From Tubulanus polymorphus (lineage: Eukaryota; Nemertea; Palaeonemertea; Tubulaniformes; Tubulanidae), in NCBI RefSeq assembly GCF_964204645.1, contig NC_134027.1, positions 7,738,485 to 7,802,484 of the forward strand: DNA of 64,000 bases, read 5' to 3'. The notes beneath the pieces were generated by a model. It saw nothing but the letters and a program-made list of their open reading frames with translations, ran no database searches and was not told where the DNA came from. The position numbers and the translations under genes are program-made. How positions within the stretch are numbered: the first letter of the stretch is position 1; the number at the start of each line of letters is the position of its first letter. Of this stretch, positions 6,223-33,600 are shown piece by piece.

Positions 6223-6490
6223 ATGGGGGGATTGTGTTCTCGTTGCGGTGGGTACGACCTGTATCGCGTAGATGACACCCGCAGCAGCGGTGAACGTTAC
6301 GGACACGCTTCGACTGGAAATAATGGCGTAATAAAGAAATCGAATCGCAAAGACGACTACGATTATGACGATGACAAAGGCGTTATACAAGACCGTGACA
6401 AAGATTCGATATCGGTATTGTCGTGGGAAGAACGCGAACGTCAAAAACAAAAAAAGTCCGGCAATACGGATATTGAAATCGAGGATATAG
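6223..6490 (+). CDS. PRKAR2: PKA regulatory subunit, alternative first coding exon 1a
   Basis: It encodes 89 residues beginning [10 protein letters not shown] and ends in phase 1 at G|GTATGT. That phase joins the shared exon at 13248 to give a glutamate followed by [11 protein letters not shown]. Gly2 with a small residue near position 6 fits N-myristoylation, and Cys5 and Cys8 could be palmitoylated. The rest is polar and rich in Asp, Lys, Arg and Ser, with an Asp/Tyr-rich run and a basic tail, and looks disordered. No docking helix is visible. The start is supported by the splice phase and by the matching start of exon 1b. Lipidation is inferred from the motif. Confidence 0.8.
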
Positions 6491-9400
6491 GTATGTATAC
6501 GGACTGAGATATTCTTTGTCCCGTCATATTCACGTCGTCGATATCAATTCACACAGCTGAGACATTGTCGGAATTGTGACTTCTCAGTATCGATCTAAAG
6601 TTGTTTATTTACCAAAGTAAGCCTTAGGTTCCTTGCTTACAGTGATATTTTTAGTACGATCTTTGAAACATCAAGTGGCACGTATCCTACCTTGAGGGGA
6701 CAACAGAGATCATGTAAAAGAGATCCTCTAGTTTTACCTATTACTGGCCAACTTCATCATGTTGAAGATTTTTGCCAGGTACAGACTTTTGTTGTTAAAT
6801 CAGTGAGTCGATGAGTACTGATATGTGTCCTACCTGTATAACATGGTTTCACGAAGATTCGAACCCACAACCTCTCGGTTGTGAGTCAAACGCCTTATGA
6901 TAAGGTGTTTGACTCAAAGGCCTTGTCCTGTCCTGTGGCATGGTGGATAAGTTATCCAAATGGTGGATAAGTTATCCACCACACCACAGGACAGGACAAG
7001 GCCTTTTGGGCCTTCCTCGACACTTTTTATAACGAGGCAATCTATAGAGATGACATTATGTGGGCATAAATTTCAATGACTGACATGAATATTTCAGCGA
7101 GTGTAAAAACCTTAAGTCCCTTATAAACGTATACAATATGGCCCAGTAGGGCTATATTACTTCTGGATCAACTGTCACTGAAGGATAATTATGTTAGTGT
7201 TTGGAGTCTCCAAGGCTAATGTTAAGCCATTTGTCTCTTAATGATGATGAATATTGTAGCCCGAAACAGTAAGATAAGTTACACTAACTCGTATTAATCC
7301 CGCCCCGTGAGTGTTACCATCAAAACCAATCCATGTTATTCCGCGGTTTTCTGCTCAGCGACTCTTGAGGGAATCATGACCCTAAGTTTATACCCGCAGG
7401 TAACGTTCATATACTGCGTTTAGTAAATGCTATCGATGTCCTCTGTGGCTGTTTATGTCAAATAAAAAATTCTTCGTTTGTGATGAGACGCATGTATCGC
7501 ATATATCGGCTGTTTGGCTCTTTCAGGTTGTACTTATTCACCACACGTATATCTAAGCCATTCTAGATCAATCGACCATAAAAAGTCTACCACATGGTCG
7601 TTTACGGAATCTTATATTCTTTCGATTTTCGGCTGGTTGAACTTATTTTCCGAAGGGATGTGAATATTTAGCTCCTGATTCAGCTATTTCGGCAAATTTT
7701 CGACGAAATTTACCCAAACACAAAATAATACAGTTTCAGCCGATGTTCAGGTAATTTTTGAATGAACTTTTTCAAAGCTCAATTTTTATAGGCCTAGGCC
7801 TATCAAATGTATGGGTTAGTTATATGTCATGAAGGTCAGCCGCATGAAATGATTTTCACTTTCACTAGCATCTTACAGTCATGAACTTACTGCTGAAAAG
7901 ATTAGTCAGTGAACCTTGCATTGCAGCATGGGATTGATCGGAAGTTTGAAAATCGTCGTGGGAATTTCCTGATTTAGATTGCCTGTCAGACATTCACTGA
8001 CAACTCGTCAGTGGTTCGAATTAAATTTGTATGAGAGTTACGTTTTAACCTTTTGTGGCAGCAAAGTTCAATGTATAAATCTCAAGACAATGTTGTTAGC
8101 GTAAAAGAATCGAATAATTTGCAGACCATCTTGACCTATGGCTTCTGCATTTGCAAAGTGATCTAATGTAAAAAATGAGTTTTGTCTGTTTTTATCCACC
8201 ACCAGCGAAAAAAAACCCCATGGAAATCTCAGGGTTTTTTTTCAACCCAGAGTCAAATCTTAATTCACAAATGTGTAACTGGGTCTAGAACTTCAAGCCT
8301 TCAGATTTTTAGCATTTTATTTTGTGTGAATATCATGCAGTATTTGACCTCCCATGCATGTCGAGACATGAACTTGGATAACCTGCACCTGTGGAGACTG
8401 GGTCCGTTGACTACTGGGTATGTTCTTTTGTCCATGGAGGCCTCAGGTAACAACAGAATCTGTAGTTAAAGGAGAAAAACGTATTCCATAAGCAGGAGTC
8501 GATCCTCTCTGATCTACTGTTTATTAATCAACGGGTAGAAATTAATTCATTTTGGGTAGAAATTCATTCATTTTGAATTATGATCAACATTTATGCTTCC
8601 AAAACTTTGACATGATGGAATTTTATTTTCCGCGAAATGAGTACTCTATGTCAAGAAAAATTGAAACAGCAAAATAGCGTGATCTCTGTTCGAATGCTAT
8701 AGCTCTCCGTAAACTGAAATCGAATGAAATAATTGATCGGGATAGATGCTCGTTGTGGGTTGCGCGTATGATTTAACTAGTCATTACGCTAATTTTGTCG
8801 TCGTAGTCGTTGTATCGCCTGCTATTCATCTAATTATGTGATCTTGCGTATTGTGGCTTCGGGATCTGATAATTTCCTGCCGCGATTTCGCAATGTCATC
8901 GAGTATTACCTTATTTCCGACTGCAAAATCTATTTCCACAACTCTCTCTCTCCAACACTCTCTCTTGATTCAACTAATGCAGTTGATAATCATTCAATTA
9001 GAATTTCACCCATGAAGTTGAATCAAATAAATGAATGAACTTATGAATGATGACGATATCTTGCGAGCCTCGAGGTTCATGAGACTGCTGCCACTGCTGT
9101 TGCTGCTGTTGCTGCTGCTGAGGAAGACATCGCTCATTCATTACGCGTGAGCTTTTTTTTGCGTCTGTCTCCTGCAGAGTATTAATCTTGTGATCAGCGT
9201 TTAATCAAGTTAGGCTTGTAAGTTTCTGGATCCCTGAAGAAATGAAAAAACCAACTTCAATTTAATCATTCAACTTCACTTTGTCTCGTGCCCCTTTCAT
9301 CATTCCTTCCCTTTTTTTCATTGCTCATCTTTTCTTGTACTCCACGGAAGGTCCAACTGCAGGGTGGCCACTGACCTAGAAAACCAGGAAAACCCCGAAA

Positions 9401-12400
9401 GCCCAGGGAATCAGAAAATCTAGAAAAAAAATGGGGAACTCTGGGAAGTTTTACAAATAAACCTGGAAATCTTAGGGTAATTGGATATGTAACAGAAATG
9501 GGTTCCTATATGAATACGTGATTCATGAAAAATGAATGAATTCAACATCATTAGATTCACTGAGGGAATTTATAATGGGCGCAAAGTGGGGTCAGCCTGG
9601 ACCCATTTCTACCCCTGTCAACTCTAAACCCTAAACCTATTCTCAAGACAGTACACATGCTGTCTCTGTAAGGCCCTATTGAACGTTCGTTCTTCAGCTC
9701 GTCTCTCTTCAGTGTCACAACCACCCCTACTAAAAACAATAAACAGTTTCGCTCTGATAATAGACATGAACATCACTCAATAATGAGCTGATGCGATTTG
9801 TTGTCTATTATCTATTGTCATGGTAACCGATCTGTCTGTATTAAACAGTTGATGTTTGCGTTATCAGTAGCTGACGCCACCTATCAGCTATCAATTGAAC
9901 CGACATTTAAACAGCGGTGATGACAGAAATCCTCTATGTATCGATTTGATCTTATAGATGGATAATAGATGTTTATTCAAACACTGTAGGAACACTTCTT
10001 TCTATATGTGAGATAGTGCGGGCCAATGATCTGTGAAGTCAAAATTAAACATCTTTTCACCTTTTGTCTCGCAATCTTTAACTAGATTTGAGACTGACAT
10101 TTTTCTAAGGTCAATATAGTTGGGACCTAAATGTCTCGTTGTGTTGGTATTAAGGTCATCTAATCAATTCTAAAGAAAACTTACCTTCGGAAGTTTTATT
10201 TGGGTCAAAATAAGAGTTTATTAGTTGACGGGAAAAAATTCACTGCTAGACATACGCCAAGCATTCTGTGTATCGGAGTTCTTATTCTTTAAAACATCAA
10301 AGCATGTCTGGTTCTTCTAGTGATTCTGATTTTGGTATGTACTGATTATCATGAGTTATAAGGGCTGGAGGATGGAATATATATTGTAGTTTTTTTCTCT
10401 TACAATCAGTGTACAAGTTAAAACATGTCTTCTATTGATTTGTTTCTGGCTATGGCTCCATCCATCCTGAAATGAATCAAGAGATTTAACATTGAATAGT
10501 TTGTTTATTCGCTTCATTGATTTAGGAAACGTATTTAGTTAAAGAATTAGCCGACTTGAGATTTGTCGAAGAACTTATAGTGATCTATAATTTGAAGATC
10601 CAACCTTTTTACCCATGTTTATTGGATGATCAGAAGTCTCCAATAAACCTCCCAGTTGTAAATAATTGAATTGTAAAATTCTGTTAGCTCTTATCAAGTG
10701 GAAAACAATCATTAGCAAATATTTCCTCTGATTAAACTCTGTCTGCTGCTGCCATCTTGTGGAGTTGATTGAAACCAACTGTCATGCTAGTGTTGGTATC
10801 TGCAGCAAATATTCTTATTGTCAGAGACCATTAGGGCAGAGAGATCGTCGGAACAACCAAAAAAAAATCCTCGAAAAAGATATATTAAGTATAACATCCT
10901 ATTTGACACAGATCTCTTGACTCTATCTGAGTCTCTACTGGGGTCAATCTTTTTTTTAAATCACTGAGTTTTATGAATAATTTTTAGGAAACACTCTATA
11001 AAGATTCTCAACTCTGTATGATGGTCAACTTTTGTGAAATTGTTAGCCTAATGTGGCCCCACCAATACTGAGTAAGGTGGAATTCAATATGCTTCCATTA
11101 GTGGTCACGAAAAATAGGGTAGAATAATTTACAATCCATTATTGAATTATTAATTCAGATTTAGGTGTGGATGTTTCAGTTTGAGTAATATTCAGTTGTC
11201 TTGTGCTGCAGTACATAGCATAAGTCCAGAGAGCCTGTTGTGTCATTATACCCACTGAGCTATTATTACTCCTTTGATCAATTATTGTATCGCATGCCAC
11301 ATTATTGCACTTCAGCTAGTGTGCTGATGTGGTAATGGACATATAAGGGTTAAACTTTGATGACTGTGCGACTGACTGTCGTGTGAGTGTGTGTGTGTTG
11401 TAGTAGAGCAGGGACACTGAAGATCGTACAGACTGTAGTAGTGGCATCAGAGATCCGCGGTCGTCGCTTGTCGGATTTCTAATCCAGCTAGTCAACGATG
11501 TAGGAAGGATTTAGTTTTTTTCTTTTTTCGAAAACTGTTTTTGACGCGCACGCACGCGTGTATTGCACTAACGACGCGACGGTATTCAAAAAAAAGTTGA
11601 CAACAAGGAATATTTATAATATGTTATGGGAGGATTATGTTCAGTTTGTCAACATCAAAGTTCACAGCGTGGTGTAAGTGCAGATAACTCTGATGATAAT
11701 AACGCCATGGGTGCTAAGTTGACCAAGTTGCGATTCAGTAAAGACTCGACGAATTCAGCCGGCAATAATTCCGATAGTAATACTAATAGTACGGATGAGG
11801 CTATTCATGCGAAAGAAGGTTGGTCGATCTTTTGGAGTTTTTGTCGTTCGTGCTACCCCCGGTATATCATTCTCCTGTCACTTGCTTGATTTAGTCACAT
11901 TCCTGAATAGAAAATGGGCACAAAGTATGCGGATTAGATTGTGCCGCTCATTTTTTGTAGTAGAATATTCGTAAATTCTGCGGATTCCATTTATAAATCA
12001 TTGATCGTCGGTCTTCCGGCAACAGCGACCCTGGAGCTGGTTTTCGGGTTTTGGTACGCGATGCTTCGATAGCGTGTTCAATAAATCATACTATTCCCCC
12101 CCCCCCCCTGGGTCATGACAGAATCTGAGAACTTATATGGGCTTCATGAACTGATAAGCAAATCAGGCAGTGATCCATGCTACCATTACATTACATGCCG
12201 TAGGATTCTTCATTGACGGCAAAAAGTTTGCATCAATTATGTATTTTTGAAGATTAGAGATATGATAGTTATTAGTTGCTTTTTTGATACATCAAATCAG
12301 AAAGTTGCCAGACACAGAATTTTGTACAAAGGGAACCAAGTTAGTAAAATCAAAGCTACGTAAGGCTGATTATATTCGAGGATTTTTCAAATAACACTCA

Positions 12401-15400
12401 ATACCAGGATCTACTTGACATAAGCCGCGATCACACAAGCATTTTTGGCTAGGTTAGGCCATAGCTAACCGTTTAACGGGTGTGCCCGTGACTGTTCGAT
12501 CCGGGCCGAATTTGGCCCAACCAAAAGCGGGGCCGAACCTGATTTTGGCGCGCATCAATCGAATCATTACGTTTGTATGCCTAGCTTTAGCATTTGATAG
12601 CATCGAGTGAGTGGTTTATGTGTGAACCCGCTCTCTCTAATCAATTTGCAAAAAATTTGACTAGGGTCTGATCCAGGCCAAATAGTTTCCGTGTATGATC
12701 GTGGCTATAAGCTGGTATACAACTAGTTGTTGAAAGTGCCAACTCGCAATTCGTTTTACGTCGTGGAATACATATTTATGTATTTTCTAGTTTCAAACAT
12801 ATGCCGACGAATAAATATTCTTGACATATCAATGCTGACAAGTGTGCTAATACGATATCCCGCTAATATCGATTGAGCGATGCCTTCAGTCGGTTTCGAG
12901 GGCGCTTCACGCGCGCAAACTCGTCGCCTGAAACGCTATATAGCCAATTCATAAATGATTTATCAAAATGGATTTCAATTAATAACTCTCTCGTCGATAT
13001 GCCGTAATAATATTGAATTTCGAGTAATGCATCACATGTAAATTTCACAGCTTTCAATCCGCGGTTAATAGCCATTTTGTGCACGCACACTTCAGATACC
13101 GATGCATGTCGCGGCGAATAGGTTCAACCCTTGAAATGCCTCGTATTGGAATATATATATTCAATACTGCTTTTTGATATTACTATTTTTCTGCTTTTTC
13201 GATATTATCATTGACGTTAATTTTGATTTTTCTTTGCTTCTTTTCAGAACCACCGAAAAACAGATTTCAAAGGCGAAAATCAGGTAAATGAAAAACTTTC
13301 ACTGTTTTAACCGGATGATATCTTTTGATTACAGCCAAATATATAACAAATTCCCTCTTCGAAAAGAAAAGTTACGGCAAAGCCATTTCCTTTTATGGGC
13401 TTTGAATAAGACTTCACCCAGATCCTAACAGAATCGTGAGATAGATGTGATGATACTGTTTGAATTTAACTGCTAGAATCGGGTACACGTCACATCGAAT
13501 AGCCGCGTATAGATCGAGAATTATCGTCATTAAACGAACTCGAATTAGAATAAAATTCACATCACCATGAATTCAGCGGCCGGTCGTCGGTCGATCGGTC
13601 GCGAAACGCATCATTCAAACTCGTGTCGGAACGGAAAATCGGCCATGTTTTTAATTAACGATTGAAAATATTCTCCGCCAACCCGATAGAAATCAATTCA
13701 TCGATGACAGCTGCGACGCATCCACCGCACGCGTTATATATAGGCTAACAAATAGGTTTTGAAAATATCAGTCGAGTCGTATTTTGTTCCTTTTATCAAC
13801 AGTCGAGCTGTCGAATATGATCCATCATGATTTTGACTTCTCGAATATAAGCATGGAATCCGAGTTCATGATGTAAACTATTAAGTCTGAAGTTCCTGGC
13901 ATGGGAATTTTATTACATACTACGGACAGCTGTGATTGGTATCAATACGAACACCTTAGGGGTAATCTATTTGTCGCCGGCATTCCTGAAAGTCATATCT
14001 CCTCCTCCTCCGTAAACTTGTTATTATTATTGAACATTTCGCCTCTATATCGACCGCAAATTCGTCGATATCTGCATATAACGTTTTTAATCAGTGAATA
14101 GCCATTAATCACTTAACGGGGCTTTCATATTCAAGACCACAATTCATTGAGAAAAAGTGCTCCAAAGCCCGTTCCATAGTCGTTGATACAATTCTGGAAT
14201 TAGATGATTAGAAATTTTACTATTCAATTTGAGAAATATTCAATTTGAGAAATATTCAATTTGAGAAATATTCAATTTGATTTTTGTTGAATAGGCGCGC
14301 TCACACTGATACGGGCCAAAGTTGGAACTGACCAAATCAGAATATGTGTTCACACGCGTCTTCCTGAATTGGCTCCAGATCGACGGCCCTGTATGATGTT
14401 GCCATGAGTATTCTACCCCAAAATTTATATCTAAATGATAGATTTATGAGTTCCTGGCTGTTGTTTATTAAACTAATTTTGATGCAGTTTATCATAGATA
14501 AATCTAGACACATCAATCAATGGTAAGTGTTCGGGCATTTTCAAAATGATTAAAACAGATAACTCCCCGAGCAACACACGCAATAGACAAAATTTAAAAT
14601 CCATTGGCCTATATACATTAACTTTAGGCAATATAGAAATTATATGAAATCTGAAAACTATATTAATCATCTTGATGATGAATTAGTGACCAGTTTATTT
14701 CCATAAAGACTAAATAAGGCCTAACAATCGATTTTCCAGTCAAATAACCATCTGGTCCAATCATCCATAGTTACAAGTAAGCCCAATTGACTGTTTGTAG
14801 ACCTTCATTTTATGAAACCATGTTGACCGTTGAACAGGATTCTAAATTCCCTTCACTTTCATAGCCTGGTGGGGCCGCGTCAGCATACACGCATTCGTGT
14901 TCGACGCGAACAAGGCTGCGCAGAAAACCCGTTATCGCTGCATTGCAGCTATATTTGCAATTGAATTCATACTGCAGAACGGACCTGGATCCGTCTTTTA
15001 GGTCAGTCCTAATTGGAACGGTCTGAAATGGAACGGACAAGGTCTATTTGGAACAGACTTTTCGCTAGTGTGAACGCCTAGTCTGTTCCAAATTGGAACG
15101 GGCCAAATTTAGACCGTTCGAAATAACATAGGGTGTACGCGGCTAACGTGTATAGAAATGATTACACCAATTTATTTGACACGAAATCCTGAAAAAATAC
15201 GACCCGTTGTTTGGCAGTCAGTATTCTCTAGCGTGAGATGTATTTATTAGTCGCTACTGAAAGGTCTCTTCCGTGAAATAACCTTATGGATCTTCTGTTC
15301 ATTTCCTGAATGCAAATACCGCGTGCGACGGAAGTATTTGGCAGTCATCCCTGCCCGCATCAATGTTTATCCATTAATTGAATACGTCGTTCCTTTAATT

Positions 15401-18400
15401 GGCTCCTGTGAGGAATCTGAATTCAAACCATATAGCGTAAAAATGGAATTTCATCAGGAAACCGGCGATGAAGTCTTAAGGCGGATATGTTATAAGCCCC
15501 AAATTGTAGACTTACTGAATTGAGTGATTTGTATAAAGAATAGATTAGTAATGTAATACGAGTCCAGTGTACACATCGACAAGTAGGCTCATAACAGGGA
15601 AACTTGAGTAGATTGTAGATTTATATGGTGTACCACGCTGTACCACGAACCTTCTAGTTACAAGCGAGACAGAACCGCGGTAATCAGAATACGTTCTCTT
15701 TATTCTACATGGAAAATGAGTTTTTCATAGAATGAATAATTGTAGTTTTCGTTCAATCTATACATTTTTTCCTGGCGATAACTTTCAATTTGTAATTTAG
15801 GCCTATTTTTTATTCTAATTGTACAATGAATTTATGCTCGATTGGTATTCTTATGCAATATCGTCACCATAAAATATGAATAAATTGAATATATCAATAT
15901 GAATAAATCAACCTTAAAATTGTATCTAAAAAAAGACAATTCAAAAGATGGGGGGATTTTTACCTACTTTTTTTGGGAATTTTTTACCCATGGGATTTTT
16001 ACCAGATTGGATTTTCCGCTAACCCTAACTTTTCATTGGTTTCCCATGGATTGAAATGTAACTTCAAAATTAACTAGGTCAATATTACAACGAGCAACGA
16101 AGACACTCGCATTCGAGTTCGTAGTCTTTTGTGCGTCATTTGCTAATAATTACATTACACATTCTAATTAACGTCTGCGCAAAATTTGATTTAAAAGGAA
16201 TAATAAACATCACACGATAGGTAAATTGAATTTTGTAGACGCACACACAACAATGTAGGACACTCACGGGGATAAATGAATCACGGGTGTCAACAAAAAG
16301 CTGAAATTTGTCTGATATACAGTGTAAATAATATTCTACTGTTGCAATTAGTCCGTTTTCATTTCCTGCACTGAATCGCATGTACAAACAACTGGATACA
16401 ATTTCTGCTAAGGCTGGTAGTTATGTCGTCCCTCCCTCGGCGGGGATTCGAACTTGATGATAAGATTTAACCACAGCATGAAACGCAGCCTGGTGAGCCC
16501 AAGCACATATGCCTGCGCAGTGGGGCTTATCAGGCAGGGTTTCATGTCGGTTCATGGTGCCATCTGGATCAAATCAAGAAATTCTAGTTTATGAAAGAGA
16601 ATAGTTTCATGACATTATTTCAAGATTTGCAAAATCAAATTAGGAACTATCAAAAATGGTACTGGAGTGTCCTGAACTAAACCTACAATAACACTCTTGT
16701 GTTTGAAAGCTTCCCCTAGTGGCTAAAAATGCTGAGCACTGTAAGCGGTGATCACACGAGCATGTTTGGCCCGGAACAACTGTTCACACGGGTGCCAAAT
16801 GGGCCCAGGCTAAATTTGGCATGACCAAAAACGTTGGACCAGGCCCAAACCAGAATTTAGCACGGGTCAAATTATTTCATCTGAATTGCAACTGGTTCGG
16901 GAAGTCTCTCACTTTGCTTTGTATTAAGTATTGCTTAGTATCGAGTCACTGATTTACATGTGAACGCGATCTCTCTTATTTGACTCGAGTCTGATCCGAG
17001 CCCATGAGCCAAATTCTCTATGTGTAATCACGGCTATAGACACTGTATCACCTTGGTCAGTCAACACACACCAGCATTTACATGTGTCTTAAACAGTATT
17101 TTCATTCCATGGTATTTTCAGTGTCAGCCGAACGTTATGATCCCGAAGCGGATGAAGACGAAGGCGATGAACAGGTAAGTGTGGAGACCTCCCCTGTTAG
17201 TATACACCCTCCTCGACGCCGTCGCCGATGACATCATCTCTTTAGACGTCTTACTAACGACGTCGTAGCAGTTAGATTTTCGCATTAACTTTGATCTAAC
17301 GTAGGCACCCCGTGGAAACAATCTAACCAATCATGATATTTCACGTTCTGATTAGCTAAGACCGTCTACTCGGGTGCATTCGGTGGAAATAGTAATTTTC
17401 TTTCGTCGACGTCGTCGTGCCCCGCAGAGCTAACGAACAATCCCTTTAACCCATCGTCAATATCCTGGCTGTAAACGCTGTAACATCGCTAGCATCGGTT
17501 TACAAATTCAACCTTCGTTTATAATTGATGATCATATTTTGCCTAGAATGGGCTACGCTCACCGGGAAAATGGCCTTCATTTATATTGATACCCTATAGC
17601 TGAAGCTCGAGTCTGCTATCTACCATGGTGTTTTGGCCGCATGGTGCTTGGCCCTGATATGACTGTCGAACGATGGTATAAAACTGGGGCCAAGTTAGAG
17701 CATGGATTCTAAGTCCATGGTTAGAGTTAACCAGTGGTTAGTTGACATAGAGACAATTAATAGTTCGTTGTTACTACGGTATTTATTTCCCCCCACCGCC
17801 CCCCCCCCCGGTTATCTTAAACCAACTCTTGAGCAACTGGTCCCTGGACCATTGGGTTCCGCAATCGGTTCGCATTCAAATGTTAGTTGAATGAATGAAA
17901 AATAACGATGAAATTGATTTAATGAAACAAGTCTAATTTCTCAAATTGATGAACGCGGCGAAACTGCAGCCTGAATATTGTCATAAGAAGAAGCCGATTC
18001 TATGTGGATGATATAACTATCGTTTAACTACAACCACTGATTGATGATTTACCTACGTATCACCCCCTGTTTAATGATCATAAAACCTGTGTGATATTCG
18101 ACAGATTGAAAACCCGTTCGAAATGATGATGGATCGCGCTAGACATTAATCAGACAATGAGATATCTGTCTCTATCTCTCTCTCTGTACAGCCCTCCTGC
18201 CCGCCCACAGTTATTCATAACCTTAAATAGACGTCGGATTTTTATATAAACTGCACAATTTCATCACAAACAAAGCCGGGTGTATGTTTCTGATGAGATA
18301 CACGAGGGATCGCAACTGAACTGAATGATTAGATTTTTGATCTGTCAACGTCGCGATATTTTCATTAATTCTCGACGAGTTTTCCTCATTTCAATTAAGC

Positions 18401-18601
18401 CGATGCACGTTTTTCTTCTACTTCAATGTTTTTCTTCTTTCTTTTTTTCGATACAGAAAGTTTATCCGAAGACGGACGAACAGCGAAAACGATTGAGCGA
18501 AGCGACGAAGAACATCCTCTTATTCAGGAGTTTAGACAATGTGAGTGTACAATGCGATTACCCGGGAATTTCTTTGTCCGTCTCTTCCTCCTCAAACATT
18601 G

Positions 18602-18664
<63 letters not shown>

Positions 18665-21600
18665 CTTATATATGTTAGAAACTCGTCGGCATTTCATTAA
18701 ACTTTTTAAAAAAGCGTGTCAACTCTTCACATTGATCTTCTATTGTTCCTACGCGTAATAATTGTCAAAAACCAATTGACACCTTTTTTACTTAAAGAAA
18801 TGATCTCCTTACACTTACTCCGCCCAAAACGAAATGAACTTCTCTCCCTGCTGTTCCCATTGTTCGTTCTCATTTACCTATTGACATTAAAGCCGATGTC
18901 GGAGACATTTTCTACCATTTTAGTCGCTACGACTCTCCGTAATTCTTGAAAACTGTCTCGGGCAGATTCTTTATTAGTGTAGAGACGCGAAAGATCCGAT
19001 GATAGATTGCGCAGTGTTAGCTAATTTAAATTGATTACTTTCTCGTTGATTCGCTTTCCTAATTTCTTGTTTGTCGATTGCATCGGAAGTGAAAAATTGC
19101 CCTGAACACGTTTGAATGGCGGTTCGGTTGCCTCAGTCACATTTCTCCTAGTATCAGGCAGAGAATGTTTTCATTGTCAGATACGTATCTAGTTTACGGA
19201 TAAACTTGAAGAGTATGAGATTTTGAAAGGCAATCGAAATGTAATAGGAGCCTCCAGTCAGCGTATGTTTACCGGGTTTTGCCTCGTGTTTCTGCAGAAT
19301 GATAATTAAAAAATTGTTGTTGATGGTATTTATCTAAGCTTTGGGGCCCTAGAGCTTAGATTTCGAGAACATACAAAAACAGCACAGAACATGTTTAAAA
19401 ATCAGTCTTTTCGATTTTCTTTTTCAGCAACAAATGCACCAAGTAATCGATGCAATGTTTGAGAGGAAGGTAACTATATCTTTTTTATCTTATTCTATTT
19501 TCTGTGTTCGTAATCATCGCACTGCCGTGTGGCGGTCACTACTGATTTGTCGATGTAGCTAGTAATGTAATTTATTCGTTCATCACATTGACGCCTAACT
19601 AGATTTTTCCTGTTATATATATACATAACGGCAGTTTCTGCTCTCTGCCATCTACTACAGCCAAAATTGATGACTGCTGCCAAGATATGACAATAATAAT
19701 TTCCTCTCTGAATAGCTCATTATCTGAATGGATCTGATCGTACACTTGTGAAGTATTTTGAAAATTAGATCGCTCTGACATTTCTCGGTAGATAGTGCCA
19801 CAATCATGGCTGGTATTCTGGTATAACCATGCCATTACTGATAATAGAATGCGTATTTTCTTCATTGTCTTGAAATCAATTTGAGAATTTTTCCGAGCGA
19901 CCATTTGGCGAATAAATAACAAACATACTACGTCAATGTTGCGCTCTGGATAGTACATCTTGCGGTACTTGTAGCATAAAAAAGATTAGTTAGCAGTGGC
20001 ATTGTAGGGCAGTCGTGTTGATCTTAGTAATGCGCTTATCAAGTGGTCTGGATCGATTTTGGCTGGCTAAGAGCGGGCTGACACAACCTCGACGATATAT
20101 ACATTATGTTTAACCAGCAATTTAATAATGTACATGAGGGAAATCATGGCGTTCTCAGGATTTGAATTATTCTCGACATGAAATGTGCGGAATTCAAATA
20201 TGGCTAGGTGTTCGCAGCGGCTACCTCTGCTTAACTAAAGCGTAATGTAATTCCTGTGAACTACGACAGTTACAGCAGTGTGTCAACAGTTGCTGACTAT
20301 CTTTGAATGTTAGCAGGGTACGGCTGTCCCTGATGATCGTTTTCCTTCCCCCTTGTGGTATGAATAGATATCCTTAAACTTGGGTCTAGTCTCCAATAAT
20401 GAGAATAGATTTGATAACAAAAATAGGGTCGCCACTCACCTGGAAATCAGGAAATGGTTAGGGAATTTTGTAAAAAGCTAACAATCGAGGAAAAATCTGG
20501 GAAATTTGTTGAGTTTGCTAGATGGTGCCTTTAATCAAACAGTTTCCGTCCAAGTTTTACGTATTTTACTTCGTTAATTGATTGGATTCTTAGCAGATCA
20601 AGTCAGGGAAAACAAAGTGCACATGTCAGGGAATAGTCAGGGAAAAAGCAAGTCGAATAAAAGTGGCAACATGTATGAATCAGTTTGTTAAATAACGCAG
20701 TTATCAGGTTTTTCAAATAGGGTTTCTCGAGTAAAGGGTTAACGCGGATAATTTTCTGCGCATATGGCGTTTCTCGTGGCGGTGTCTTATTTTAATAGTC
20801 AGACTTTAATTCGATGAACTAAGATTCAGTTTACAGCGATAGAAGATCCCGGTAATGGAGCTCATCAGGTGATCATATTAGATATAACGTCGACGGTCTA
20901 TGAATCATTTGTCGGCGGCGTGTGCCATATTTATAAAGACTGGTATTATGAATGGCCCTCGTGTTAATTGTATTTATCAAATTGTCTTCCACTTTAAGTA
21001 ATAAAAAAGCTTTTAAAAAGAAAATACTGCAAATATAAGTCATTTTTAGGATCAACCGTGTTGATGGTCCTGAAAATAACAGTCTGTTTGCTCTTGGTGG
21101 CACAAATTGTAACCGCTGGATATACACAGCTGGTATTTTGTCATTAGGCGAGAAATAGGGGTTCATTAGTCCGTCCACTCTGCCGTTTAGAAGTACTGGG
21201 AGAAAATGTTCAAAAATTTCAATGAATTTATCCCCATTCTACTTATCGGTGCTTGGCCTTAATTCTAGATAATGACGTCATTGGGAAAGTCCTTCGGTAT
21301 TCAAGTCGCAAATCCCAGAACAAATCGTTTTTTTGTGGTCAAAAGTAAAACTGTACTCAGTTGATCCTACTGGACCCATGGTCCTTTATTCATGCATAGA
21401 TATGATAGAGCTTATTCGTTTCAAAAAAAATAGGAGCGTAGAATTTTGTCCGAACATTAGTAGAAGTTCGATGGAAAATCTTAGTCATTGTGCGGGGGGG
21501 AAAATAATTATGCTAATTTTTCTCTAGTTAGGCTAATTACTCGATACGAAAAACATCTAAACTTAGTTAGCATTTTGATGTCGAATGAACCGACGGGATC

Positions 21601-24600
21601 TGTCGGATTCGCCACCGATTGATCGGTTGGGTATCGGTAGGCGTTGTTGTTTATCTCGGATTGTTCCGGCATTTATCGACTTCTATTCTCGCGGAGACTT
21701 TCGACATGACTTTTTTTTATTCGTCGTTCGATGCGATCGACGCGCGGCGGTCGGTCTGTATTCGCCGTGCATCTAATGCGCCCCGAACGAGCCCGGATAA
21801 TTGGATCTTGCTGACGTCCATACATCTGTCTGTTGGTTGTCATCTCGCGCTGATATGAAAAGCCCGGATGGCCGGTAATGCCGTCAAATCATCACCGCTG
21901 ATGATAATACAGCTGTTTAGTGGCTTGTGTACATGAGGTGATCAGAAAGAATACTTCATTTGTCGCCGAATCGAACGGAGCCCTTGATCAATTCCATTGT
22001 CTCGAGACCACAAAATTCGGTTTGTGTTTAGGGACGTCTGTTGGTGGCATGTAAGAGGCTGAACTTACTGAAGTCATCAGTCTTTTACCGGTCGTATCAA
22101 TCCAGGATTCGTCGGTCGTCGAAATCTTCTTGAAGTATCAAAGACACTTTCTTTGACTTTGATTGCGCATACGCAGATCGCTCTAGTCTGCAAGAACCGT
22201 TTGAAATACCGCAGTGTGCCACTCACTACCGTATATTGGTTGCTGTGGGGATGATGTTGATCATGGACTATGTAACTAGTTTTCAAATCCAAGCAGTAAT
22301 GAAATGATAAATTATCAGTTGGGAACTGAGAGGCATGTCATTTGCCCTTTGTTTAAAGAGCAGAAAGACATTAGCGACTACGTTTAACAGCGAGTCTGCT
22401 GGTCCGCCGTGAACTTTGGTATTTTGTCATTCAACAGTTGGAAATGCAGTCGCAGTCGTTTTTATCTCCCCGATGACAAACATTTGCTTAAGGAGAGATA
22501 AAGCTTTTTTAAGTCTTCCAATATTTAAGAATATGAAATATTCCGTTGGGAAATACGTTTTAAATATTCTGATCTATTCAGCAGATTGAGGGATGAGATC
22601 TCCGTCTTTTGTTTTCGATTTATTTTTTCTATTTTCGCTTACCGGGGGTACGATGAAAAAAGTAAGCAGCGGGGAATCGAAAATTGAATTACAGGGGACG
22701 CTTTGATTTATATATTTTTCATGCCGCGACCACATTCGTGGTTTATTAACGTGCATTACGCTTTCGTGAAAGCGATGACGACTGCGCGAAATATGGTTTG
22801 CTCTAGGATGCATTACGCCGGTGAGGCTATTTCAGGTCTTACCGTTCATTCGTTCGTCTGTCTCGCGGTATGGTAATTCATATTTTACACACTTAATAAA
22901 CCACGAGCGTCTCCAGCGTCATTAGTGAAACAAATCAAACGGAAACTCTCTCAAAGTGTGAACTCAACTCAACTCAACTGAAAGCGTAGAATATCGGTAT
23001 GATTCCGGCTGATATTAGATATTCTAACACTAAGGGGTTGTAGATCTACACCTTGCAACTATACATAATCCCTTTTTTCATCAAATGTTTTACCGAATCA
23101 TAGGAAGGAATATTTTTAGGTTTTCTTTAGATGAGTGTTGCATCCTTGGATGTATTTCAACTATTGCTAAACAACATCCTTATTCAGTTGGTATTTGTAA
23201 TTATTGTCATGAATATGAATAGTAAACAAGGGTGAATCAGTGCCCTTATTCATTTTGTCAATAACGATATTTGGTGCATTTCTCAGTAGGGAGTGCAGGC
23301 TATATTGCCTTTTTAGACATCAAAATGCCCGTTTGGGATGCGACTTTGAAATTGGCCTCCGGATCTGCCCTGTATATCTACATTTTTGGGGCCTTTAAGC
23401 TCATTTTTAAAATAAAGATATTTTCATTTCTTTTGATTTCAGGTAACGCCTGACGAACATGTAATTGACCAAGGAGATGATGGAGATAATTTCTATGTTA
23501 TTGACACGTAAGTTTACATTTAGTCACATCCTGTGGCCAGCGTTTGCTTGCTCTGAATAATTATTAATAACTCAAACCGGTTTACCGTGCTCTTATTTGA
23601 AACCTGCTGATAATCATTTCGACCAATTATTCATTCATTGAGTGCTCTTTATACAGGTCTCTCTCCCCTCTCGCCTCTCCCCCTCTCTCGCTGTTTCTGC
23701 TCCCCTCCAGGGGACTGTTATCCCTCTTTCTTAACTGTAGCCCTCTTGTCATATTTCCAACTGCATTGAGATTACAAGCCTCTCATTGTTTCTCAGCAAA
23801 GAAAACTGCCTCATTTTTACCTGCCCTCCCCTTTTGATCTAACAGAGAAGAAGCATTTGAATGTAAACTTTTTTAGGTATCAATTTTATGTTTTTCATTT
23901 TTCCGTAAAATTTCAGGGCAAGTTGATATTTTCAGGAGGGGTGCACACGCTCGTATCTACCTGTGATGTATGTCGGCTACCACGCATAAAATGCATCCTC
24001 ACTGAAATGAACGTCGTGTGTCCCTTATGTCCTTGCTTGCCTTTGAAAGACTCGCGCTCACGTGGTCCCCCTATTCAATCAGTCCCTCACATCCCACACT
24101 CGCGCCTTTTAATCGAACCCACGTTTAATCAGCCTATACTACAAACTAAACTATAATTTCATAGGGTCGGTAAGGTTGATTATGAGCTGTATATTGTGCT
24201 GGCTTTTTCCACTGCGTTGAACATAATTGTTATCGTTCTCCTCACGTAGTCGTCGTCGTCAGCTACTCCGTCGACGTCGAGAACTGGAAAGCTTCACGGA
24301 GAGGATTTAGCTTTGATCTTGAAAAATGATGTTTCAGCTACAGCGTTGTTACCCGGGAAACCCTGGTCAATTCAAAGTGCTAATCGAAATTGGATTGCTC
24401 CATATTAATGTGGAATTAAAAAGTAACGACTGCGACGAGCTAATCTTTCGTCATCCCGGCGCGAGATCGGCGATGAACGTGAAAGCCTCCATCGGTGCTT
24501 CAGATCCACGTATTACCGTCAGATTTTACTGAATGTTCAATGTTCGTTTTATCCAAGTTCCAGGATACTCGAATCTTGGGTATAGTCGACTGTATACTGG

Positions 24601-27600
24601 ATATTTTCAACATGTTTCTGCTAACTTGTAGCTGTAACAAGCCAATATATTAGATTAAAAAGATTCTGTAAATTAGCTATCACAAGATCAGCGAGGCCTG
24701 GCTCAGACCAGAGTTAAATTTGGCCAGTGCCTAATTATAGAGCGTGTCAATCGCTAAATAATGCTGTGACAAAGTGAAGTGAGTCACTTCCAGCACCAGT
24801 AAGCATTCACACGCAATAATTTGAGCTGAAAATTTGGTATGGCTCAGGTCTGACGTTTTTGGTATGGCCATAGGCATGGGTCCATTTGGCACCCATAGCA
24901 ACGGTTGGCCTTGGCTCATTTGGCACATAGGCCAAAACCACTTGCGTGATCATAGCTGTTTCGTTCCCTGTGGTTTTGTGAGTCAAACAATAGATAAACA
25001 GAGAATGAAAAAAACTGGTTATATCGTTATCGAATCTCAAATGATGAAACCCGCAAAGAGAAACCTTTCATTCTTATTTTCATCCTATTAAGCGCAAAAA
25101 GTGATATTCTCAGGTACGGGATTTTTTGGCCAATTCTTGGTGCCAGCAAATCAACAGGCGAGATTCTTGTAATCTCCGAAAGTTATGCGCGTAGATCCGT
25201 CGATCCTCGACGGATTGAGAAATAAATGAACGGGATCGCGATATCCAGTGCGCTGCCATGGCAACAAAGGTATTTCCTGCTCGGAGATTTTGCCGCTTTT
25301 CCACAAGTCAAAGTCGGTTCATATGACGATGTCATCGGCGGCGGAGGTATACAACCAACGGTCTGTGTGTCGACAACGCGTATCGTATCCCTCAGGTGAC
25401 TGGGGAATACTGACGTTATCTCTGCGTCTCTTTCTCCTTGTTCAGAAAACAATCAGTTTTTGGTACGAAGCACCTAATCATCGTGAGAATTCCGCCCGTG
25501 AGGCAGCGCGCGCGCCCGCGCCAACACGAAACGACAAGAACGAATCAATCTAGAAAAAAAGACCAGGACCCGAGCGCTATTAAGTATTCTATTTCCGGCG
25601 TTGAAGAGGAAATAACGGGTTTCTCATGTTTTTTTACGACGATTCCCATTAGTTACGGTAATAATAGTTTTCCATCGAGGCGTACCCTCGGACGCGATGT
25701 ATTCTGTAAACTGTAATATTGCCCCGAAGCCCTGGTTTGCTTAGCGATGCTATTCATTGCAATTGCGATATTGTCGTTTTTGCACCAGGTGTGAAGCAAC
25801 TTTACTCCAATCACTGTCACGGTAAATCATTTCTATCGTCGCCCGCTCACAAAAAAATCTTTAGCTCATTGCGACCAAGCAGATCATTGCATTTTTTAGA
25901 GTATGTTTTTCAGTTTGAAAACTTATGATCCCTCGAAGCTTTACTTCAATTTTCAATCATAACGTTATATTTTATCATGTACTTTTAGGGGCACTTATGA
26001 TATTTATGTAGAAGTTGATGGTAAGCCTAAATGCGTAGGACAGTACGATAGTCAAGGCAGCTTCGGTGAATTGGCTTTAATGTATAATATGCCTCGTGCT
26101 GCAACTATCATTGCAACATCGGAAGGAACTCTTTGGGCTATGGTAAGTGAAATCAAAAATATTTGTGCTCTGGGTGTTTTTGTTGGTGGGAGAGTAAGGA
26201 ATGGCTCTGATTCTGGGGTTTTATATGGAATCAGAAGCAAAAGTTCCTTTCATAGCTCGCTTGCTCGTTTTAAATTAACCGAATCAAATTGACGAAAATA
26301 ATCACGGATTAGAAATTGAGAAATGCTGCAAAGTTGACTTTTCTCACACGCATCGATAAGATTTCAGCTACAATTCGAATTTAACGGCTTCATTTGCCTG
26401 CGCAGAATTCTCAGAACAATCACCGCTTCGAAAACAAATCTGTTTGAAATATACCTGAAACTTAAGTCTTTTAGATAATTTGCTTGACGAATTGATAATT
26501 GCTTGACCTTAAACACTTGATAGAAACAAAAAATATTTATTCGATTTCTGCGATCGATTATTGAAGGATATTTTCGTCATCAATTCTACGCTCTATTTAC
26601 TAAGACATTTCGAACTACCCTGCAATTTCATCGCGGTAATTAATTTATGTAGCTTGTTTTCGAAGAAGCGCCATTTTCAGTCGTAACTACCCAATATTTG
26701 TAGCGTTGCGTTTTTCAAAGGGCGCATGTGCCCCGCGGCAAAACTGATGAACTTTGATGATCAAATAATATAAGCGGATGTTACGCAGAAATTTGCAATA
26801 CGACTGTGTAGTTCTTATAGACAGCGTCATCTTCTCTTGAGCATAGTGTTCGCTTACACTTCTATGTCTTGAGATATACATTTATTTTTCATCCCTTGAC
26901 AGCTGTCTTCCATTAATGAATGGCGTTATGTTGTAACGGTAATCAAAGTGTCGTGGAAACTGAAACGTATTCGTAGAGTTCAGTACTTTCAAGGTTTTTC
27001 CAATAGATTCTAATGGATGCTATTCGTTCGAATATTCTGTAGATTCACGGGGTGAAATCTTTATGGCCTCCTCCATAAAAGATGGCAGGCTCCTATTTTT
27101 CGTATCACCTCATTTCAGAGCAATTATCAGCATTGATAGAGTATTGACATCCCTGGTAGGGGCAGCAGATATTTTATTTGGGGTGGCTGGTTCTCAGAGG
27201 GGTGGATATAAAAATGAAAGGGATGGCCCCCCTTCCAAACCTGTTGTGGAGAACACTGCTATGATATCATCTTATTGCTTACTAGAATTTGATGTTTGAA
27301 TCTTGCCTGAATATGATGTCATAGGGAGATAAAGGAGTCAGCTATGTTTTAATTGTAGGGAATCTTTGCCACACTTAAGAATCGTCGCTAGTTTTGCGTT
27401 TTGAATCAATGATTAAAATGATGATTACAAATGGTAGTCTAATTAGACCGACGCCCGCTGGATACGTTTTAATCAATCGTTGCTTTAATTTACAGGATCG
27501 AGCCACGTTCAGACGCATCGTATTAAAGAACGCTTTCAATAAACGCAAAATGTACGAAAATCTCCTCGAAAATGTACCAATGCTCAAAACATTAGATGTA

Positions 27601-30600: not shown

Positions 30601-33600
30601 CGCAGTTGTTATTAACACAGGCTTAGTTCTGACTACGCACAATACACCTCGACAATAGAACTAAAACTGGTTTATTTTTAATTTCTCAACTACACAAATC
30701 ACTACGAAAACACGGCAATTTGTTTCCTAGACAATGCTCTACTACGCTCAATGCTCAATAATTATTAAAGATTTTTCGAAGATGCGTAATTAATTCTGTG
30801 TAATTCGCAGAAATATTGACTTTATATGAGATTATGATGAGAATCCGTTTATGGAATGATTACTTCTGAATTTTGGTTATAGCTTCGTGGTAATAACTAT
30901 AAGAGACTATTCATACCTCAAATAGTAATGAACATTTAGGCTTTGAATATTTTTTTAATAAGCGGAATAAAATGTTTCAATATTTATTTCCTGATTTTAA
31001 AGGTCTATTACAATTAAAATCCACTGTTGATTTTCACTTTATTCATGTGTATTTTTGCAGAGTTATGAAAGAATGAACGTCGCGGATGCTTTAGCACCGA
31101 AAACATTCGAAGATGGAGATCTCATCATTAAACAGGTAATCGTGAGATTGAATACGTATGTCTTTCGAGACTTATACTTTCTCTGATTCAGTGTCAGGTC
31201 GTCGAAATATTTATGGTCCTGAAACACCAGTTAGGCTGAGTAGCCTGCGACCCAATCTACTTCATTATTATACAGTTGTATCATACGTATGATATTTTGT
31301 GAAGTACATTTCTGCCCTTTTTGTTGAACTTTGGTTCATTTATTCCTATACGATTTTTTTGTGCCAATAACGCTGATCTCTGTGTTATTAGGCGGCTAAA
31401 ACTCCTTCTGTTGTGTCAATTTTGTGTTGATATGAATGCTATTTTATTAGTTGACATTTAATACTCTTGTAGAGCTATGGTTATTTGTCTGGAACAATCT
31501 GCAGCCCTGTTGACCATTGTCAAACATGCTACTTCTCATAAACTTGATTCCGTTCTCTATTTACCGAAGATTTTTTTATCTCAATCTCTTGCACTGTAGT
31601 CAGATTAGTTTTTTCGTAGAGTGTAAAAATGAATATTTTTAAGATGAACTTTGGTATATTGGTATTTTATGCGCTCTGGCTTATAATATAAGAATTAAAT
31701 TTTTTTTGTGGCGCAAACTACTTGCCATGTACAAGTTAAACTTAAACCCTTAAAAGTGGAAGGATAAATCTATCATAGACTGCATCATTCGAGATACTGA
31801 CAGAGCCATTCGCATTAGATTTGCTTCCAAGATTTTCACAATATGGGTTGAATAATATATGAACTAAATTCAGCCGTAGGAGGTATATGTTCATCACAGG
31901 GCAGCTGCAGCAACTGGTCTTGACAATCCTGACAGTTCAATTGTGAGGTCCTTAGAAAAAATATCGAGAAAATGTCCATGTGCGCAAATGGTTTTTGTCT
32001 GATTCGTAATTCCACCATGAGTAAAAGTGATTGAGTAGAAGGAATGAGGGGAGCCCATCATGTGGTCTAATTTTTCCTAGTCGCACTACCACGCAACACC
32101 GCAATCTACTGTGTAATTATATTATCAAAGAAACAGCGCACAAATTGCTTCTATTGTGTTGGTTATATATGTATATATCACTCATCTTCCGGTGAGATTT
32201 GAATAATGACATCTTTTAGGAATAGACCTTGCTCTATTCAGTCACAAAAAAATATTTAGTATATAACGCTATCATATGCGGTTATCATAGTGTAGTTTTA
32301 CAGTAAACTCTGCCCATCTTGGACACTAAATCTTCCGCCATCTTTTGCAGACCACTAATTGAAATTTGAAAACATCAAGGTTAAGTCGAAGCATGTGGCC
32401 AAATTATTTTTGAAGCTTATAGATGGTGAATACTGAGGCATGAGGACGTTGTCTCTGAGATTGATCGATCAAAGCACCATCCGCGTGTGTATTTTTATCG
32501 CAACAGGTTCATTACGCGATTAATCAATAGGGACTGATTCATTAATATAAGCGAGGTTATATCTATCAATTGTCAGAGGTTTCACCCGACAAGGTGAAAG
32601 TTGTCGTTTTTATTTGCCGATTAATCATTTTTGTGTTTTTATTCCAGGGTGACGATGCTGATTGCATGTATTTCGTCGAGGAAGGTGAAGTAAGAATAAC
32701 CATGACTAACATGGTACGTATGAACGTGCTGAGGGGATCAGAGGTTTCGTTTCGACATCTTCTATCAAATACTTATTAATTCGGAATCAATAGGTTCTCG
32801 TGATTAACCAATGATTGATTTTATTGCACTTATCAGCTTGGATAGGTCTTTATCCTGCTGTTGAATTAAGAGAACCGTGTGGTCCAGGGCCCCACAATCC
32901 AACACTCCATCCTTATCGATATTGATTAATCAATTATGAATTGTGTCAAGACTATTCGATTTTCCAATTTTGCCAATTCTAATTCGCGGTTCTCTGCTGC
33001 ATAGGTGGCCTTCTCTACTGCATAGGTGGCAGCACCATCTGGTTTGAAGTATTATTTCTGGTATTTGCCGTTATGTTTTTCAGAATGATCCGAATACCGA
33101 AGTTGAATTAACCCGATGTAAAAAAGGCGATTATTTTGGAGGTGTGTTTGACTTCACTATTGCTGATATCAATGATATAAATGCAGTATGTTCGATGACG
33201 TGGAATCTGATGATTTACTCATAATTCGGATATTTTTCTCATTTTCAGAATTAGCACTTGTCACTCATAAACCGAGAGCAGCTTCTGCTTATTCCGTAGG
33301 AACAACGCGTTGTGCAGGTAAACGCATAATATTTCTCGCATATGGATAGTTATTGATTCGCGTGTATTTTCACTTTCTATAGAATGACTGTCCGGTCCAC
33401 GTGTTACCTAGACAACATACTATAATACCTGCAATCATTGGTGTCTACATGATGCGTTGCTTGAATGAAAAAATGTCAGGCATTATCAATCACGGCAGTG
33501 TTCTCCGATACAGGTTTTAGAGGAATGGCGACCCCTATCATTTTCACATCCACCCATCTGAAAATCAGTCACCCCCTTATGATATATCTGCTAAGGATCT

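What the first reader, a model, noticed from the sequence alone, without database searches (positions are those of the whole stretch)
6223..11818. PKA type II regulatory subunit with acylation-motif N-termini and no docking domain
Two separate first exons both start MGGLCSxC and both splice in phase to the exon with the RRKS inhibitor site. Type II regulatory subunits normally begin with a helix pair that dimerises and binds A-kinase anchoring proteins. Here the predicted proteins lack it and carry a myristoylation/palmitoylation-like end, suggesting a membrane-attached, possibly monomeric regulatory subunit that does not need anchoring proteins. Motif and phase are seen; lipidation and monomer state are inferred.
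Basis: partly seen in the sequence, partly recalled or inferred. Interest (0 to 1): 0.85.

Follow-up and report, generated by a model that had tools for sequence, protein, structure and literature searches.

The report
Lipid-tail first exons in PKA gene
One animal gene for a regulatory subunit of protein kinase A appears to have three alternative beginnings, one with the usual anchoring-protein docking domain and two with a likely lipid-attachment signal instead, which would let the same kinase be held on membranes in two different ways.

Summary
Window 6223-6490 and 11626-11818 are open exons starting MGGLCSxC. Each ATG has an in-frame stop just upstream, and each exon ends at a phase-1 GT donor that joins in frame to the RRKS exon (13248-13283) of a complete type II PKA regulatory-subunit gene. 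A DNA pattern for the eight-codon start occurs twice in the 267.8-Mb genome, both times here.

"No docking domain" is wrong for the gene. A canonical docking exon (RIIa, 57.7 bits) starts 7,181 bp upstream of the window, same strand and phase, and fits the same RRKS exon. An intronless RII copy elsewhere also carries docking domain plus RRxS.

Best reading: one lophotrochozoan-type RII gene with three alternative first exons. One gives ordinary AKAP-docking RII. Two replace docking with a putative myristoyl/palmitoyl end, so R could tether the kinase to membrane directly. Transcripts, lipidation and monomer state are inferred; exon 1b is less secure than 1a. Acylated, docking-less R is known in Toxoplasma, and docking-less R sequences in decapods. 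My open-access searches showed no acylated animal R. New variant of a known kind.

The parts
6223..6490 (+). Alternative first coding exon 1a, MGGLCSRC..., 268 nt, phase-1 end (GTATGT); a shorter in-phase end at 6247 is possible
11626..11818 (+). Alternative first coding exon 1b, MGGLCSVC..., 193 nt, phase-1 end (GTTGGT, weak); holds a second in-frame start MGAKLTK at 11707
13248..13283 (+). Common exon 2, [12 protein letters not shown], autoinhibitor site; fits the docking exon (outside the window, C3:7731304-7731547) and exons 1a and 1b
17122..17174 (+). RII exon, [18 protein letters not shown]
18457..18540 (+). RII exon, [28 protein letters not shown]
19428..19469 (+). RII exon, [14 protein letters not shown]
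23443..23507 (+). RII exon, start of cAMP-binding domain A ([21 protein letters not shown])
25989..26142 (+). RII exon, cAMP-binding domain [16 protein letters not shown]
27496..27597 (+). RII exon, [34 protein letters not shown]
31061..31135 (+). RII exon, [25 protein letters not shown]
32648..32713 (+). RII exon, cAMP-binding domain [23 protein letters not shown]
33084..33141 (+). RII exon, [19 protein letters not shown]
33249..33317 (+). RII exon, cAMP-binding domain [24 protein letters not shown]
33656..33786 (+). Last RII coding exon with stop codon, [43 protein letters not shown]

Best explanation
This is the one spliced RII gene found in a lophotrochozoan-type animal genome, with three alternative first coding exons, probably each with its own promoter. 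All end in phase 1 and all fit the RRKS exon. The upstream exon (outside the window) makes ordinary RII: docking/dimerisation domain, dimer, AKAP-bound. Exons 1a and 1b replace that domain with MGGLCSxC plus a polar linker. After Met removal, Gly2 would be N-myristoylated and Cys5/Cys8 palmitoylated, so the R subunit itself, without an AKAP and probably as one R with one C, would hold inhibited kinase on a membrane until cAMP releases C. SHOWN: sequences, frames, phases, rarity of the motif, intact cAMP-binding domains and inhibitor site, no RIIa match in the two isoforms, presence of the docking exon upstream. INFERRED: expression, separate promoters, lipidation, membrane location, monomer state.
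For: Frames, phase-1 ends and upstream stops. Pattern 2 times in 267.8 Mb, both here. In the shared residues MGGLCS-C, 4 of 7 codons differ and the 4 differences are synonymous; BLASTP finds no other meaningful similarity between the exons. In 22.7 kb, MG-consensus frames with 60 or more codons before a GT are these two; controls give 0 on its minus strand, 0 and 1 on the strands of the other 50.7 kb of the window, 0 and 0 on the strands of 79 kb of the RI gene. Codon score: 1a beats 141 of 141 control frames, the docking exon 140 of 141, 1b 129 of 141. Docking exon in the same phase and a docking + RRxS retrocopy. RIIa in the docking isoform only, cNMP_binding in all three. Precedent: Toxoplasma PKAr1 (passages).
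Against: No transcript, proteomic or cross-species evidence. Exon 1b: weak donor matched by a stronger-consensus out-of-frame GTAAGT, an out-of-frame ATG at -5, its first 16 codons beat only 1 of 141 control frames, and the synonymous-only codon score does not separate 1b (or the docking exon) from controls. A poly-T/AG stands directly before the 1a ATG, so a 5' untranslated exon could precede it. No tool here tests lipidation. The linkers could hold another dimerisation element; the exon-1a model was too poor to say (mean pLDDT 53.4).
Confidence: 0.7

Rival explanations
1. The gene lost its docking domain and makes only acylated RII.
For: The window holds no docking exon: the best RIIa match of the genome lies upstream of it.
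Against: Docking exon C3:7731304-7731547, same strand and phase, 20.2 kb before exon 2. The core search finds only one spliced RII gene and one intronless copy, so no second spliced RII gene was found to own that exon.
Confidence: 0.03
2. The two MGGLCS frames are internal cassette exons or parts of 5' leaders of docking-type transcripts, not translation starts.
For: 6 of 22 AGs (1a) and 5 of 42 AGs (1b) would allow an in-frame cassette. A poly-T/AG lies directly before the 1a ATG.
Against: The frame-keeping acceptors have 6-10 pyrimidines in 20 nt against 13-18 for the 12 acceptors of the common exons; the docking exon joined at 6223 runs into a stop. It would leave the twice-kept MGGLCSxC right after a stop codon unexplained.
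Confidence: 0.08
3. Exon 1a is a real acylated first exon, but 1b is a decayed or non-functional duplicate.
For: 1b has the weaker donor, an overlapping ATG at -5 and the weaker codon signal.
Against: 1b keeps the motif with synonymous differences and an open frame to a phase-1 donor; codons after the 16th beat 140 of 141 control frames.
Confidence: 0.14
4. The frames are chance ORFs, or first exons of another gene.
For: No RNA data. Phase alone agrees by chance one time in three for each exon.
Against: Motif frequency and controls. Of nine other ORFs scanned, the matches over the Pfam cut-off are on the minus strand and the three plus-strand ORFs have none; not every ORF was scanned.
Confidence: 0.05

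Closest known systems
Metazoan PKA type II regulatory subunit (RIIalpha/RIIbeta)
   Same: RRxS inhibitor site, two cAMP-binding domains, docking exon; near full-length match to PDB RIIalpha, E 1.9e-139
   Different: Two extra first exons that replace the docking domain with MGGLCSxC
Toxoplasma gondii PKAr1
   Same: No docking domain, Gly2 and two early Cys; first 15 residues send GFP to the periphery, lost with G2A or C5A/C7A (passages of PMC6152992)
   Different: Separate lineage; there the acylated form is the R subunit described, here it is an alternative to a docking form. Cys at 5 and 7 there, 5 and 8 here
Decapod PKA-RI and -RII sequences lacking the docking domain
   Same: Animal R subunits without an identifiable docking domain (PMC12608923: abstract, section 2.2, Discussion part 1 of 2, passages)
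   Different: No acylation-type end on R in the parts I read ('palmitoyl' 0 occurrences; 'myristoyl' 2, the one shown about the catalytic subunit)
Alternative 5' exons of PKA catalytic genes (Calpha1/Calpha2, Cbeta1-4)
   Same: First-exon choice decides whether a PKA subunit can be myristoylated (passages of PMC6143667 and PMC3625193)
   Different: Catalytic, not regulatory, subunit
smAKAP
   Same: N-terminal myristoylation and palmitoylation put PKA at the plasma membrane (passage of PMC13025221)
   Different: A separate anchoring protein, for RI; here the lipid end would be on R itself

Membership tests
PKA type II regulatory subunit | Two cyclic-nucleotide-binding domains | tested here: met
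   PF00027, 2 stretches in each of three isoforms
PKA type II regulatory subunit | RRxS (not RRxG/A) autoinhibitor site | tested here: met
   RRKS in exon 13248-13283
PKA type II regulatory subunit | Closer to RII than to RI | tested here: met
   Best RII 1.9e-139, best RI 8.4e-72
PKA type II regulatory subunit | Docking/dimerisation domain (RIIa), docking isoform | tested here: met
   PF02197, 53.6 bits, residues 8-43
PKA type II regulatory subunit | Docking/dimerisation domain (RIIa), 1a and 1b isoforms | tested here: not met
   No RIIa match at E 0.001 in the whole proteins or at E 10 in the exons alone
Dual-acylated, docking-less R subunit (works like Toxoplasma PKAr1) | Gly2 with Ser/Thr-type residue 6 and early Cys | tested here: met
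   MGGLCSxC after an upstream stop; consensus recalled
Dual-acylated, docking-less R subunit (works like Toxoplasma PKAr1) | Lipidation, membrane location, one R with one C | not testable with these tools
   Needs labelling, imaging, biophysics
Dual-acylated, docking-less R subunit (works like Toxoplasma PKAr1) | Common descent with apicomplexan PKAr N-terminus | not tested
   No apicomplexan PKAr was compared; the core is animal RII, so convergence is assumed
Alternative first exons of one gene | Common donor phase and common acceptor exon | tested here: met
   Docking exon 244 nt, 1a 268 nt, 1b 193 nt, each 1 mod 3
Alternative first exons of one gene | Transcripts joining each first exon to the common exon | not testable with these tools
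   No RNA data reached

The most novel reading that the evidence does not exclude
An animal lineage evolved a promoter-level switch that exchanges AKAP docking for direct lipid anchoring in the same RII gene. A duplicated, separately kept MGGLCSxC cassette makes membrane-bound, one-R-one-C PKA that is blind to AKAP networks, convergent with apicomplexan PKAr and probably conserved beyond this species.
Probability: 0.5. Interest if true: 0.78.

Novelty: new variant of a known kind. Interest (0 to 1): 0.62.

Why it matters
Animal PKA is understood to be located mainly by AKAPs through the docking domain of R. A gene that can swap that domain for a lipid end by choice of first exon would give an animal an AKAP-independent membrane pool of PKA, a natural experiment on whether the R dimer is needed for compartmentalised cAMP signalling. 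AKAP-disruptor peptides and docking-domain baits would miss part of PKA in such animals. It would also be a convergent partner to the acylated regulatory subunit of Toxoplasma.

Tried and rejected
Docking domain absent from the gene: rejected. Remote docking homology of exons 1a/1b: no RIIa in Pfam at E 10 (one hit below cut-off, a zinc ribbon at E 0.27, in 1b) and no PDB match at E 10. Fold of exon 1a: mean pLDDT 53.4, single sequence, one 8-residue helix, uninformative. Acylated first exon in the RI gene: in 79 kb (5 kb of it N) no MG-consensus frame with 60 or more codons before a GT; two with 30 or more (47 and 50 codons long) on the plus strand, of unrelated sequence. Internal-cassette reading: poor acceptors. 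Mitochondrial COX1 to place the organism: none found; Hox genes used instead. Rfam on the window at gathering thresholds: 0 matches.

Literature, all ten searches: the letters MGGLCS in 0 papers; the listings showed no acylated animal R subunit. They cover only open-licence PMC text and my terms, so absence from print is not shown, and predicted isoforms may sit in sequence databases I could not reach. Donor weights, the myristoylation consensus, and the Hox and DSTYK recognitions are recalled, not from a call.
Full report
WHAT IS THERE. The window lies at G000:C3:7738485-7802484 of a 267.8-Mb, 77-contig genome. Twelve exons from 13248 to 33786 on the + strand, with AG acceptors and GT donors, encode the RRKS site and both cAMP-binding domains of a type II PKA regulatory subunit. 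With the docking exon the model is 392 aa and matches PDB RIIalpha over residues 3-390 (E 1.9e-139; best RI chain 8.4e-72).

THE TWO MGGLCS EXONS. 6223-6490 (exon 1a) and 11626-11818 (exon 1b) start MGGLCSRC and MGGLCSVC. An in-frame stop lies 6 and 9 nt upstream, so these are the first Met of their frames. Both lengths are 1 mod 3 and both join to 13248 as G|AA (Glu), giving 400 and 375 aa. A DNA pattern covering MGGLC[S/T]xC is found 2 times in the whole genome, both here, with 0 reverse-strand and 0 control matches. BLASTP aligns the exons over residues 1-8 (7 of 8 identical, E 4e-4 for this one comparison); the only other alignment is 9 residues at E 14. Of the 7 codons for the shared residues, 4 (G2, L4, S6, C8) differ, all synonymously. 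This fits a kept peptide on old duplicates, or convergence on one signal, and not a recent DNA copy.

HOW SPECIAL IS IT. In 22.7 kb from upstream of the docking exon to exon 2, the ATG frames of 60 or more codons with an acceptable phase-1 donor are four: the docking exon, one frame overlapping it, 1a and 1b; three further long frames have no such donor. MG-consensus frames with 60 or more codons before a GT: 2 in this 22.7 kb; 0 on its minus strand; 0 and 1 on the two strands of the remaining 50.7 kb of the window; 0 and 0 on the two strands of 79 kb of the RI gene, 5 kb of which is N. With 30 or more codons the counts are 3 (one being the internal Met of 1b), 0, 0, 2, 2, 0. In window plus L010, both strands, 5 of 526 ATG frames of 30 or more codons fit the consensus and 2 of those have an early Cys: these two. 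Codon score (trained on 1108 codons): 1a beats 141 of 141 control frames; the docking exon 140 of 141; 1b whole 129 of 141; 1b after codon 16, 140 of 141; 1b first 16 codons, 1 of 141. The synonymous-only score separates 1a (139 of 141) but neither 1b nor the docking exon.

WEAK POINTS OF THE GENE MODEL. Exon 1a has two good donors, after 6247 (4.7) and 6490 (3.4), both phase 1; the short one would give MGGLCSRC directly before [12 protein letters not shown]. The donor of 1b is weak (1.9; the 11 internal donors of the common exons score 3.4-8.8) and a GTAAGT after 11673 (2.0) would shift the frame. An ATG at -5 of 1b opens an overlapping out-of-frame ORF of 18 codons with its stop at 11675. 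1b also holds an in-frame [12 protein letters not shown] start at 11707. As internal cassettes behind the docking exon, 6 of 22 AGs (1a) and 5 of 42 AGs (1b) would keep the frame, but with 6-10 pyrimidines in 20 against 13-18 for the 12 acceptors of the common exons; joining at 6223 gives a stop. First-exon use is the better reading.

THE DOCKING EXON. A genome search with Pfam RIIa gives its best hit (57.7 bits, E 3.4e-13) at C3:7731325-7731432. The exon C3:7731304-7731547 begins [39 protein letters not shown], ends CAG|GTCAGT in phase 1, and lies 20.2 kb before exon 2 on the same strand. A search with the RII core gives 14 matches: 10 exons of this gene, one intronless copy at C5:5067901-5068767 (64% identity), two exons on C4 next to RI-type sequence, and one weak further C4 hit (E 1.1e-4). 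The intronless copy reads [25 protein letters not shown]...[19 protein letters not shown], a spliced fossil of the docking-RRxS join. The gene therefore keeps docking RII, and 'no docking domain' holds only for two isoforms.

MECHANISM. Pfam finds RIIa in the docking isoform only and two cAMP-binding stretches in all three. Inference: myristate on G2 and palmitate on C5/C8 hold R, and through RRKS the catalytic subunit, on a membrane; cAMP then frees C; without the docking helices R is probably monomeric. The closest working precedent is Toxoplasma PKAr1 (passages of PMC6152992): no docking domain, G2/C5/C7, 15 residues target GFP to the periphery, and G2A or C5A/C7A abrogate it. Plasmodium PKAr lacks the docking domain and its inactive enzyme is thought to be a heterodimer (passages of PMC5746546). 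In PKA catalytic genes alternative 5' exons likewise decide myristoylation (passages of PMC6143667 and PMC3625193). A 2025 survey of 1122 PKA-R sequences reports decapod RI and RII lacking the docking domain, without an acylation reading of R in the parts I read (abstract, section 2.2, Discussion part 1 of 2, passages of PMC12608923). The trypanosome R has a long N-terminus in place of the dimerisation domain (passage of PMC6027212).

ORGANISM. Ten Hox-type homeodomain exons lie on one strand of C6:5318228-5634756, two of them with Lox2/Lox4-like tails. By recalled signatures this is a lophotrochozoan. No mitochondrial COX1 was found, so I give no narrower name.

VERDICT. A real, gene-specific feature, overstated in one main respect. 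New variant of a known kind: an animal RII gene with acylation-type alternative first exons. My ten searches did not show this in print, but they cover open-licence papers only, and conservation in relatives, the key test, was out of reach.

Noticed in passing
L013 (G000:C5:5067901-5068767, minus strand): Intronless RII copy with an open frame of 374 aa, docking domain and RRHS site kept, 64% identical to the RII core: a retrogene that looks intact.
   Followed up: partly
window 11707: Second in-frame start in exon 1b, gccATGG, reading [12 protein letters not shown]: a myristoylation-plus-basic-type end that leaky scanning could use; the out-of-frame ORF from the ATG at 11621 ends shortly before it, at 11675.
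   Followed up: partly
window 6223-6247: The best-scoring donor inside exon 1a would make a 25-nt first exon and put the acylation motif directly against the RRKS exon.
   Followed up: partly
window 28726-30054, minus strand: A 442-codon frame with a Myb/SANT-like domain (E 9.1e-14), antisense inside an RII intron.
   Followed up: no
window 40191-49975, minus strand: Exons with a protein kinase domain (E 1.6e-8) and upstream ORFs with a sub-cut-off Dynamin_N match; I recall DSTYK as looking like this.
   Followed up: no
window about 6915-7007: A long inverted repeat (aaggccttgtcctgtcctgtgg ... ccacaggacaggacaaggcctt) in the intron after exon 1a, MITE-like by eye.
   Followed up: no
G000:C6:5318228-5634756 (L027-L035, L037): Ten Hox-type homeodomain exons on one strand within about 316 kb, lophotrochozoan-like by recalled signatures.
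   Followed up: partly
G000:C5:5588356-5608796 (L038, L036): Two homeodomain exons about 20 kb apart that I recall as Gsx-like and Cdx-like, a possible ParaHox pair.
   Followed up: no
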